From Roseivirga spongicola (GTDB taxonomy: Bacteria; Bacteroidota; Bacteroidia; Cytophagales; Cyclobacteriaceae): a stretch of 64,000 bases of DNA. Location: positions 186,001 through 250,000 of the forward strand of contig NZ_LRPC01000001.1 of assembly GCF_001592965.1 (NCBI RefSeq), read 5' to 3'. A program made the position numbers and the translations under genes. The notes beneath the pieces are model-generated. The model was not told the DNA's origin. It searched no databases and saw nothing but the letters and a program-made list of their open reading frames with translations. Shown one piece after another: positions 32,482-34,347 of the stretch (positions are counted from its first letter, which is position 1; each line of letters starts with the position of its first letter).

Positions 32482-32525
32482 TCTTTAGCACTCATTTCCA
32501 GTTTGACTGGGAATCTCAAAATATT

Positions 32526-32561
32526 AAGCCTGTCAGCTCTTGAATAGCTGACAGGCTTTTT
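32526..32561 (+). terminator. Terminator of guaB
   Basis: A 13-bp stem (AAGCCTGTCAGCT / AGCTGACAGGCTT) with a 7-nt loop and a T-run lies 45 bp after guaB. Confidence 0.92.
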
Positions 32562-32631
32562 GTCTTTAGATCGATTCAATTCAATATAACAGGCATATTG
32601 ATTATCTTTCTAATTACACACTACCAACCAC

Positions 32632-34209
32632 ATGAACCTGACAAAACTCTCCCCCGAAAAAATAGACCTCTTATTACAAGGAGAAACAGTAAAGGATGAA
32701 AAAAAGCAGAGCTTATCCTTCTTAAGAGAAAGTTCACAGGGAGGGTTTTATATACAAATCAATGACCTAGTTATTGAACGTGTTTTAATTCTCAATACTA
32801 ACTATGACCTACCTATTTACTTTACAGGAGAGAGTCAGTTTGACTACATTTTTATTGAAGGTCAGGCAAAAATCACAGGGTTAGTCTTTCAAGATAAAAC
32901 GAGAGCTATTTCAGTAACGACTATGAGTAATGCCCAAATAGATAAGTTAATATTTACCGAAAACGTTTCTATAGAGGACATCGATATATCTGGTAAATCT
33001 TTAATTGAAGAGGTTAGAGTTCATAACAATGCGCAAATTTCATGGATTGGTATTTCTGGAAGCGCGAAAGTAAACAACTTATGCTTTTTAGGTAATTGCA
33101 CAATTGGAGATGTTGACATCTATGAAACGGCCAAAGTGAAAAACATAGAAATTAATGAATTTGCATCTTGTGATGAAGTTAACATAGGTGAAAACTCTAT
33201 TGTGTATGATCTCGACCTTAAGGGCGACTCCAAAATATCTGAATTTACACTTTCGGAAAAGGCTATACTCAATGTATTCGAAATAACAGAAAACCCAGAA
33301 GTAACAGAAATAATCTTTGAAGGAGGTAAAATTGAAAACTACATAAAGTTTCACAAATGGACTTCAAACTCAGCGTTGCTCAGGAACTCAGGCACCAGCT
33401 TTCCACTCAAGTTCCTTATTCAAGATATATTAATAGGTCAAATTAGATTTATTGACTTTCATGTCAATTCAATAATTCAAATATCCAGACTAAGAGCGAA
33501 CGGAGACTATCAGGGCAAAAAAGAGATTGAGTTTCAAAACTGTACATTTTCCAAACTTGAGCTAATCGATAACTCTTTAGATACTTTTGATAGACTGGTT
33601 TTTAAGAATTCTGACATTACTTCCTGCTTCCTCTCACAAACCTCATTCCCCAATTCTGTTGCATCTACCTCTATATCACAAAATAGCCGTGCGAGTTTAA
33701 AGGAAAGCCATGTTCAAAAAAAACTCTTCTTCGAACAAGTTAAGACGATATATAATCGTCAAGGAAACAAAACAGAGTCCATAATATATCAAGCCAAAGA
33801 ACTCAATGCACATTATACAATTCTCAACTGGAATAAGAACTTTTGGGACAAACTCACACTCTGGTTCAACAAAAACACCACTAACTTTGGTACAAGTTGG
33901 ACAAGAGGATTCTTAGCACTATTGGTCACCACCATTCCTTTGTTTGTACTTCTGCTCTGGTCTACAAAAGGTGTAGTAGCTGTTTGGCCTTGGCAAATGA
34001 ACTCAGAAGACTTTGGGCTTTATGCCACTCAATATTTCGACTTTATTAATCCAACTTCTTATATCTGGAAAAGATGGGATTTTATTTATGAGTTAGAAGG
34101 TGGGGAAGTCCGCTGGGGAGTAAAACTCCTACTTCTTTTCTCTAAAGTCTTAATAGTCACTATTATCTATCAAATCATTCAAGCCTTTAGAAAGTTCGGA
34201 AGGAAATAG
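32632..34209 (+). CDS. Membrane-anchored beta-solenoid protein with sixteen 11-residue repeats
   Basis: 525 residues, no family recognised. Residues 68-243 are sixteen consecutive 11-residue units with no gaps, consensus (A/S)-x-I-x-x-(I/V/L)-x-(I/F)-x-x-(N/G); examples are AQISWIGISGS, AKVNNLCFLGN and AKVKNIEINEF. Alternating hydrophobic residues predict short beta strands stacked into a solenoid, recalling bactofilins or pentapeptide proteins but with a different period. Residues about 295-340 continue as pentapeptide-like (FQNCTFSKLEL, FKNSDITSCFL). Then come a helical linker and two membrane helices (about 425-445 and 500-520). It lacks a signal peptide, so the solenoid is probably cytosolic. 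The gene is AT-rich compared with neighbours and stands alone between terminators. Confidence 0.75.
   Translation: MNLTKLSPEKIDLLLQGETVKDEKKQSLSFLRESSQGGFYIQINDLVIERVLILNTNYDLPIYFTGESQFDYIFIEGQAKITGLVFQDKTRAISVTTMSNAQIDKLIFTENVSIEDIDISGKSLIEEVRVHNNAQISWIGISGSAKVNNLCFLGNCTIGDVDIYETAKVKNIEINEFASCDEVNIGENSIVYDLDLKGDSKISEFTLSEKAILNVFEITENPEVTEIIFEGGKIENYIKFHKWTSNSALLRNSGTSFPLKFLIQDILIGQIRFIDFHVNSIIQISRLRANGDYQGKKEIEFQNCTFSKLELIDNSLDTFDRLVFKNSDITSCFLSQTSFPNSVASTSISQNSRASLKESHVQKKLFFEQVKTIYNRQGNKTESIIYQAKELNAHYTILNWNKNFWDKLTLWFNKNTTNFGTSWTRGFLALLVTTIPLFVLLLWSTKGVVAVWPWQMNSEDFGLYATQYFDFINPTSYIWKRWDFIYELEGGEVRWGVKLLLLFSKVLIVTIIYQIIQAFRKFGRK
32833..33360 (+). repeat. Region coding sixteen tandem 11-residue repeats
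   Basis: The 33-bp units encode the 11-residue repeats. DNA-level identity between units is low while the hydrophobic pattern is kept, so the array is old and maintained by selection on structure rather than recently amplified. Confidence 0.75.
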
Positions 34210-34213
34210 ATCA

Positions 34214-34227
34214 GGGAGATTTCTCCC
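34214..34227. repeat. Short palindrome in dispersed-repeat-like sequence
   Basis: GGGAGA-TT-TCTCCC is followed by AATGAC...GGGAATGAC. Such GAGATTTCTCCC...AATGAC strings are, from memory, frequent in intergenic DNA of marine Bacteroidota. Confidence 0.4.
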
Positions 34228-34270
34228 AATGACCATCGGGATCGCGGGAATGACAATCACACAAAAACGA

Positions 34271-34298
34271 AAAGGCCACTCCTTGCGAAGTGGCCTTT
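34271..34298. terminator. Bidirectional terminator between repeat protein and secDF
   Basis: The arms AAAGGCCACT and AGTGGCCTTT form a perfect 10-bp stem with an 8-nt loop. A-rich and T-rich flanks on both sides suit convergent genes. Confidence 0.88.
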
Positions 34299-34347
34299 CT
34301 ATTTTCTAAAATCTAGTGTCTATTTGACGTCTAGCCTCTGAAATCTA

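What the first reader, a model, noticed from the sequence alone, without database searches (positions are those of the whole stretch)
32632..34209. Membrane protein built on sixteen gap-free 11-residue repeats
Residues 68-243 divide exactly into sixteen 11-residue units with consensus (A/S)xIxx(I/V/L)x(I/F)xx(N/G). That period differs from the pentapeptide fold (5) and from hexapeptide solenoids (6). A shift to pentapeptide-like sequence follows, then two membrane helices. The gene is alone, AT-rich, lacks a recognised family and sits between terminators, which fits an accessory or newly acquired system such as a membrane-linked sensor or polymer-forming scaffold.
Basis: seen in the sequence. 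Interest (0 to 1): 0.7.

Follow-up and report, generated by a model that had tools for sequence, protein, structure and literature searches.

The report
Membrane-anchored beta-solenoid with 11-residue repeats
A bacterium of the Bacteroidota carries a stand-alone gene for a membrane protein whose main part is predicted to be a long beta-coil built of sixteen 11-residue units, probably a five-plus-six variant of the pentapeptide-repeat coil, and it belongs to a scattered, unnamed family whose job is still unknown.

Summary
Residues 68-243 are sixteen gap-free 11-residue units; period 11 explains 56% of hydropathy variance, against at most 23% in 10,000 shuffles. Two nearly full-length orthologues (32-33% identity) keep the period. 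AlphaFold2 gives a confident beta-solenoid there.

The gene belongs to an unnamed Bacteroidota family: a variable solenoid, a TPR-like linker and a conserved hydrophobic C-terminal module (36 of 341 genomes of the order, own included). Five of 10 relatives scanned carry Pfam Pentapeptide_3 above its cut-off; their core residues are spaced 5,6,5,6, so they too have period 11. The 11-mer is most likely a pentapeptide plus a hexapeptide, two per roughly 22-residue coil. Against this: the window's repeats match no Pfam family, profile comparison with Pentapeptide_3 relatives failed, and no solved structure matched.

The gene fills a variable guaB-secDF slot, empty in the closest congener. Function is inferred only: a membrane-tethered binding/sensor protein, possibly a defence effector. 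Verdict: genuine, moderately interesting variant of a known kind.

The parts
32632..34206 (+). gene for the 525-aa protein (P0001); stop at 34207-34209
   Evidence: nearly full-length orthologues at 32-33% identity in two other genera of the family, the same two found again in named records
32632..32832 (+). N-terminal lead-in of the solenoid (residues 1-67), with a short helix at 8-15
   Evidence: AlphaFold2 secondary structure
32833..33360 (+). sixteen 11-residue units (residues 68-243), consensus about AxIxxLxIxGN, predicted beta-solenoid
33361..33651 (+). less regular continuation of the solenoid, possibly pentapeptide-like (residues 244-340)
   Evidence: strands (block pLDDT 48-88); sub-threshold Pentapeptide_4 match at 300-340, E 0.28
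33718..33855 (+). helical linker (residues 363-408), TPR-like in its first half, conserved in the family
   Evidence: alignments A1, A6; profile A1 weakly matches an engineered consensus TPR protein, E 0.0036; helices but at low pLDDT
33907..33963 (+). predicted membrane helix 1 (residues 426-444)
   Evidence: hydropathy 2.20
33964..34125 (+). loop between the two hydrophobic stretches (residues 445-498), with F471-x-x-P474; the P is conserved in at least 90% of 32 relatives
34126..34206 (+). predicted membrane helix 2 (499-517) and conserved YQIIQAFRKFGRK tail
   Evidence: hydropathy 2.05; invariant Q, F, R
32526..32558 (+). terminator-like hairpin after guaB; a like hairpin stands at the empty site of the closest congener
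34270..34299 (.). terminator-like hairpin on both strands, between this gene and secDF; a like hairpin stands at the empty site

Best explanation
The gene encodes an accessory inner-membrane protein. Its N-terminal two thirds form a cytoplasmic beta-solenoid of the pentapeptide kind in which every second pentapeptide carries one extra residue: the 11-mer A-x-I-x-x / L-x-I-x-x-N is one five-residue face plus one six-residue face, and two 11-mers make a four-sided coil of about 22 residues. A TPR-like helical linker joins the solenoid to a conserved membrane hairpin. Most likely the solenoid binds a partner in the cytoplasm and the hairpin tethers that complex to the membrane or, as an oligomer, passes a signal to it or perturbs it. 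The gene is an accessory gene that sits, in this genome, in the guaB-secDF slot. Shown: sequence period, family, slot. Predicted: solenoid, membrane helices. Inferred: 5+6 faces, coil size, cytoplasmic topology (no hydrophobic stretch at the N-terminus, basic C-terminal tail), function.
For: Period 11 far beyond shuffles. The two orthologues keep it, with period-11 power 0.63 and 0.81 in their best 110-residue windows, 0 of 300 shuffle scans reaching either. Between anchors that I chose, the three proteins have 166, 165 and 209 residues, that is 15.1, 15.0 and 19.0 units. AlphaFold2 models of the window protein and of the L067 orthologue show mostly one 7-8-residue strand plus a 3-4-residue turn per unit, with core block pLDDT of 90-97; strand lengths 8 and 7 alternate over the six units from 101 to 166, as a 22-residue coil would give. 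Relatives sharing the C-terminal module, own genome included: 36 of 341 order genomes, 12 of 395 phylum genomes. 5 of the 10 relatives scanned exceed the Pentapeptide_3 cut-off and show 5,6,5,6 spacing. Slot: the closest congener G015 (secDF 90% identical) has guaB and secDF about 190 bases apart, with two hairpins and no gene.
Against: No pentapeptide model reaches its cut-off on the window protein. hhalign of 44-residue repeat tiles gave no support for relatedness: window 11-mers against Pentapeptide_3 tiles Probab 0.03, against GGxF 11-mers 0.10, against hexapeptide tiles (control) 0.05. No Foldseek match in the PDB at E <= 0.001 for either model; among the 50 rows shown for L067 the best pentapeptide protein was AlbG (E 3.9, TMt 0.35), and none stands among the 50 rows shown for the window model. 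Pooled repeat similarity at lag 22 is not higher than at lag 11 (0.634 against 0.661, 8 proteins). The 8/7 strand alternation stops after residue 166. The membrane module was modelled with low confidence (blocks 26-56); of 32 family proteins, hydrophobic stretch 1 passes my threshold in 31 but stretch 2 in only 18, so two membrane helices are not certain for the family. Only three sequences entered the models. 19 of 33 family proteins do not show period 11 strongly. Nothing tests the function.
Confidence: 0.45

Rival explanations
1. A beta-solenoid class unrelated to pentapeptide proteins, in which each 11-mer is a repeat of its own kind (two-sided coil of 11 or 22 residues). The shared C-terminal module then shows domain exchange rather than a common solenoid origin.
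For: No Pfam match of the 11-mers; no PDB match at E <= 0.001; profile comparison with Pentapeptide_3 tiles failed; in the window model most units are one unbroken 7-8-residue strand, whereas pentapeptide coils have short strands broken at each corner (recalled).
Against: Relatives with the same module carry Pentapeptide_3 solenoids with the same period 11 from 5+6 steps, and L006 mixes 5,5,5 and 5,6,5,6 in one solenoid. The inward pattern A-x-I / L-x-I fits the i-2 and i positions of pentapeptides (recalled).
Confidence: 0.25
2. Defence or toxin-like effector: the solenoid senses a phage product or a partner protein and the membrane hairpin then damages the membrane (abortive infection).
For: Scattered distribution and a variable slot. 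Of 10 neighbours that I picked for a closer look, 5, at 4 of the 18 placed loci, match defence or defence-candidate models: PDC-S49, PDC-M65A, PDC-M65B, PD-Lambda-2_B, REase_I. In L096 the relative overlaps the end of an XRE-IrrE gene resembling PD-lambda-2 B.
Against: No PADLOC model matches the 6 family members tested at E <= 1. No neighbour recurs at the same place in more than 3 of 18 loci. 69 control neighbours gave 25 PADLOC families against 26 for 67 true neighbours (21 of the 25 are GajB helicase models), so enrichment is not shown. The window gene itself lies between housekeeping genes.
Confidence: 0.2
3. A channel or transport subunit gated by the cytoplasmic solenoid.
For: A helix-loop-helix with a conserved proline in the loop and an invariant Q-x-x-x-(A/S)-F-R tail could be a pore module.
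Against: No channel family in Pfam matches the window protein or the 10 relatives scanned; the membrane part is poorly modelled.
Confidence: 0.1
4. Polymer-forming or scaffold protein like a bactofilin, tethered to the membrane.
For: A solenoid could stack end to end; L067 has a sub-threshold Bactofilin match (E 0.25, 12.0 bits, cut-off 27.9).
Against: The window protein has no Bactofilin match at E <= 10. The genome has three bactofilins above the cut-off elsewhere.
Confidence: 0.08

Closest known systems
Pentapeptide repeat proteins, above all the Pfam Pentapeptide_3 (PF13576) type
   Same: Five relatives with the same C-terminal module are above-cut-off members, with alternate 5 and 6 spacing and period 11.
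   Different: The window's 11-mers match no pentapeptide model; the core is I/V/L rather than F; by eye, the small residue stands before the 5-step in the window unit but before the 6-step in L013.
HglK-like membrane pentapeptide proteins of cyanobacteria (review PMC8145042, passages seen)
   Same: Pentapeptide-type region plus membrane helices in one chain.
   Different: HglK is described with four N-terminal membrane regions and C-terminal classic AXLXX repeats; here the membrane part is C-terminal and the repeats are 11-mers.
Bactofilins (PF04519)
   Same: Beta-solenoid, polymer-forming in known members (recalled).
   Different: No significant match; linker and membrane part present here.
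Left-handed hexapeptide solenoids (PF00132, GlmU)
   Same: Chance-level matches to GlmU.
   Different: No period 6 (F 0.16).
PD-lambda-2 defence system (PMC9519451, passages seen)
   Same: One relative (L029 in L096) follows an XRE-peptidase gene like its B component.
   Different: The third component there is described as related to a P4 phage antitoxin; the window gene has no such neighbours.

Membership tests
Pentapeptide repeat proteins (PF00805/PF13576/PF13599) | score above the Pfam cut-off | tested here: not met
   Pentapeptide_4 11.7 bits against cut-off 38, E 0.28, at residues 300-340 only; no other pentapeptide model at E <= 10
Pentapeptide repeat proteins (PF00805/PF13576/PF13599) | at least eight contiguous pentapeptides (definition in the abstract of PMC8145042) | tested here: not met
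   period 5 F 0.34 against period 11 F 21.2 over residues 68-243
Pentapeptide repeat proteins (PF00805/PF13576/PF13599) | right-handed four-sided beta-helix | tested here: inconclusive
   beta-solenoid with high pLDDT, but handedness and sides cannot be read from the outputs; PDB matches weak
Pentapeptide_3-like 5+6 repeats | core residues spaced 5,6,5,6 | tested here: met
   window columns 3 and 8 of the 11-mer; F-F gaps 5,6,5,6 in five relatives
Pentapeptide_3-like 5+6 repeats | profile similarity to Pentapeptide_3 tiles | tested here: not met
   hhalign Probab 0.03; 40 against 18 tiles, L006 not among them
Unnamed Bacteroidota family: solenoid + TPR-like linker + hydrophobic C-terminal module | conserved C-terminal module | tested here: met
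   alignment A6 of 32 sequences; Q, F and R of the Q-x-x-x-(A/S)-F-R tail invariant
Bactofilin (PF04519) | score above the Pfam cut-off | tested here: not met
   no match for the window protein at E <= 10
Hexapeptide solenoid (PF00132) | period 6 and Pfam match | tested here: not met
Known anti-phage systems (PADLOC 2.0.0) | match to a system protein | tested here: not met
   0 families at E <= 1 for the window protein and 5 relatives
Membrane channels | ion conduction | not testable with these tools
   needs an experiment

The most novel reading that the evidence does not exclude
A membrane-anchored beta-solenoid class with 22-residue coils made of two 11-mers, for which no solved structure was found. 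Its length changes by whole units, and it is coupled through a TPR-like linker to an undescribed membrane module shared across Bacteroidota. The solenoid is the fast-changing recognition part of a stand-alone sensor/effector that moves between chromosomal slots, some of them beside defence genes.
Probability: 0.2. Interest if true: 0.65.

Novelty: new variant of a known kind. Interest (0 to 1): 0.4.

Why it matters
If true, it would show that the pentapeptide coil tolerates a regular extra residue every second face, giving a coil geometry for which the searches here found no solved structure, and so a new regular scaffold for protein design. It also describes a scattered family without a Pfam or NCBIfam model for its membrane module, with one conserved module and highly variable solenoids, a pattern one might expect of recognition proteins, and names relatives on which function can be tested.

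Tried and rejected
Hexapeptide or GlmU-like solenoid: only chance-level matches and no period 6. Bactofilin: not matched. PHROGs: only weak matches for 4 proteins (best E 0.014 for L018, 0.02 for L067 to a tail fibre family, 0.032 for P0001). Phage or plasmid carriage: no tblastn match of P0001 at E <= 0.001 in 72,556 plasmid or 50,697 phage records, nor of L067 in phages, nor of the L018 module in plasmids; the Pentapeptide_3 relative L005 matches 26 plasmid records, and the 10 listed are all annotated 'pentapeptide repeat-containing protein'. Conserved neighbours: of 174 neighbours at 18 of the 20 loci fetched (2 could not be placed by my tail match) 18 pairs are similar, at 21-40% identity; three loci (L094, L096, L104) share a similar gene at -4, nothing is shared more widely in one place. 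Coil size from repeat similarity at lags 11, 22, 33 and more: no odd/even signal. Profile comparison of repeat tiles: six comparisons, the best only Probab 0.23 (Pentapeptide_3 against GGxF tiles); tile sets were chosen by hand, one L005 tile is out of register, and a bactofilin set was prepared but not compared. Sequence search of the PDB with the C-terminal profile and single proteins gave only weak matches (L067 to Borrelia BB0238 at E 0.0064). A single-sequence scan of genome contigs found nothing; the alignment scan found only the two orthologues already seen. First regular expressions for extracting relatives were wrong and were repeated.

Papers: PMC8145042, PMC9519451 and PMC7159879 were seen as found passages; others only as search listings. 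These eight searches showed no paper on an 11-residue pentapeptide variant or on this membrane family, which says little, since only open PMC text is held. Confidence in the best explanation was lowered from 0.5 to 0.45 on rechecking (second hydrophobic stretch in only 18 of 32 proteins).

Full report
What is there. The ORF at 32632-34209 (+) encodes 525 residues. Residues 68-243 form sixteen 11-residue units with no gap. Period 11 explains 56% of the hydropathy variance; the mean of 10,000 shuffles is 5.7% and the maximum 23%. In 14 of 16 units positions 3, 6 and 8 are all I, V, L, F, M or C; the best of 20,000 shuffles, best register each time, gave 7.

Relatives. The own genome has one copy. 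Own genome counted, 8 of 59 near genomes match P0001 at E <= 0.001 and 13 of 390 family genomes at E <= 1e-5. Only two besides the window match over nearly the full length: G457 (32%) and G422 (33%). Contig lengths show that they are the two loci found again in genome contigs, a Bacteroidia MAG (L066) and Agaribacillus aureus (L067). Both keep period 11 (best-window power 0.63 and 0.81; 0 of 300 shuffle scans reached either). In L067 units such as GEAQTGDLQIF recur almost unchanged. Distances between anchors that I chose are 166, 165 and 209 residues, that is 15.1, 15.0 and 19.0 units.

The rest of the family shares mainly the C-terminal part. A profile of that part (A1, 7 sequences) finds 36 of 341 genomes of the order, and a wider one (A6, 32 sequences) finds 12 of 395 genomes of the phylum, the own genome counted in both. 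It comprises a TPR-like stretch (weak match of A1 to an engineered consensus TPR protein, E 0.0036), a T-N-x-x-G-x-S-W segment, a hydrophobic stretch, a loop with a conserved proline, a second, weaker hydrophobic stretch and a Q-x-x-x-(A/S)-F-R tail whose Q, F and R are invariant. No Pfam or NCBIfam model above its cut-off covers it in the proteins scanned (window protein and 10 relatives for Pfam; window protein and 6 for NCBIfam). The first hydrophobic stretch passes my threshold in 31 of 32 proteins, the second in 18 of 32, so the two-helix picture is good for the window protein and its orthologue L059 but not certain for all; L060 (the L067 orthologue) shows only the second.

What the 11-mer is. 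Of the 10 relatives scanned, 5 (L005, L006, L013, L063, L065) carry Pentapeptide_3 above its cut-off. These five also show period 11 (at most 2 of 300 shuffle scans reached each), because their core phenylalanines are spaced 5,6,5,6; L006 changes from 5,5,5 to 5,6,5,6 within one solenoid. Other relatives (L004, L016, L018) have F-x-x-x-F-x-I-like 11-mers with a period 11 that none of 300 shuffle scans reached. The window unit A-x-I-x-x-L-x-I-x-x-N has core residues at 3 and 8, the same 5 and 6 steps. I conclude that the 11-mer is most likely a pentapeptide-type face pair with one extra residue. Against this, profile comparison failed, no pentapeptide model is reached in the window, and 19 of the 33 proteins tested do not show period 11 strongly.

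Structure. AlphaFold2 with three sequences gives, for the window protein, block pLDDT of 90-97 over residues 51-220 and mostly one strand of 7-8 residues plus a turn of 3-4 per unit; for L067 block pLDDT of 90 or more over residues 101-250. Strand lengths 8 and 7 alternate over the six units from 101 to 166 and then stop alternating: weak evidence that two units make one turn. Foldseek found no PDB match at E <= 0.001 for either model (80 and 94 matches at E <= 10) and none in the viral library (best E 0.013, prob 0.99, an unnamed phage protein). Whole models with poor membrane parts were searched, so a missed solenoid match is possible. The membrane part is not resolved (blocks of 26-56). The solenoid region is acidic in the window protein (net -17 over 316 residues).

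Place in the genome. secDF was found in 19 of 19 genomes of the genus, own included. In 4 of the 18 others guaB lies within the fetched flank beside secDF: G015 with about 190 bases and no gene between, G009 with about 430 bases, G018 with a 214-codon open frame and G002 with a 294-codon open frame (by eye the last two look HNH-like and AstE-like, not tested). In the other 14 guaB was not seen in the flank; five of them show only a short 35-57% match to part of guaB. G015 is the closest (secDF 90%) and has both hairpins. The window gene therefore sits in a slot of variable content. Its GC is low (0.352 against a mean of 0.414), but GC3 is not unusual, so the AT-richness may largely follow from the amino acids and is weak evidence for recent arrival. 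Whether the gene was gained here or lost in G015 is not settled.

Function. No neighbour recurs at the same place in more than 3 of 18 relatives' loci. Some neighbours match defence-type models: 67 neighbours at +-1 and +-2 gave 26 PADLOC families, several of them from one restriction-type protein; 10 neighbours looked at singly gave 5 matches at 4 loci. 69 control neighbours gave 25 families, 21 of them GajB helicase models. That is suggestive, not tested enrichment. L096 is notable: the relative overlaps the end of an XRE-IrrE gene like the B component of PD-lambda-2. I commit to a membrane-tethered binding or sensor protein as the most likely role, with an effector role as the liveliest rival; neither is tested.

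Verdict. Confirmed observation; interpretation partly right; a new variant of a known kind.

Noticed in passing
window 32482-34347; L069, L071, L076, L077: The guaB-secDF junction is a slot of variable content between two hairpins: empty in G015, different open frames in G018 and G002.
   Followed up: partly
L096:5650-8910: A relative (L029) overlaps the end of an XRE-IrrE gene resembling PD-lambda-2 B, preceded by a small ORF without a Pfam match; a possible three-gene toxin-antitoxin-like operon with a solenoid membrane protein as third member.
   Followed up: partly
L094:3417-9179: A relative (L064) lies just after a PDC-M65A/B pair (E 1.9e-135 and 2.1e-298), a candidate defence system in PADLOC.
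   Followed up: no
L106:6088-8703: The relative L007 is short (253 aa, no long solenoid) and directly follows transposase-like ORFs (HTH_29, DDE_3), as if an insertion element had cut the gene.
   Followed up: no
L009:1501-2025: A second, broken homologue with several stops in G031; described only.
   Followed up: no
L022, L032: By eye, the same C-terminal module follows long helical, charged stretches in or instead of a solenoid (both frames are cut by the end of the stretch), so it may be a general membrane output module.
   Followed up: no
L125, L126, L127; L134-L138: The window's genome also holds three bactofilins and three open frames with Pentapeptide_3 matches above the cut-off elsewhere.
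   Followed up: no
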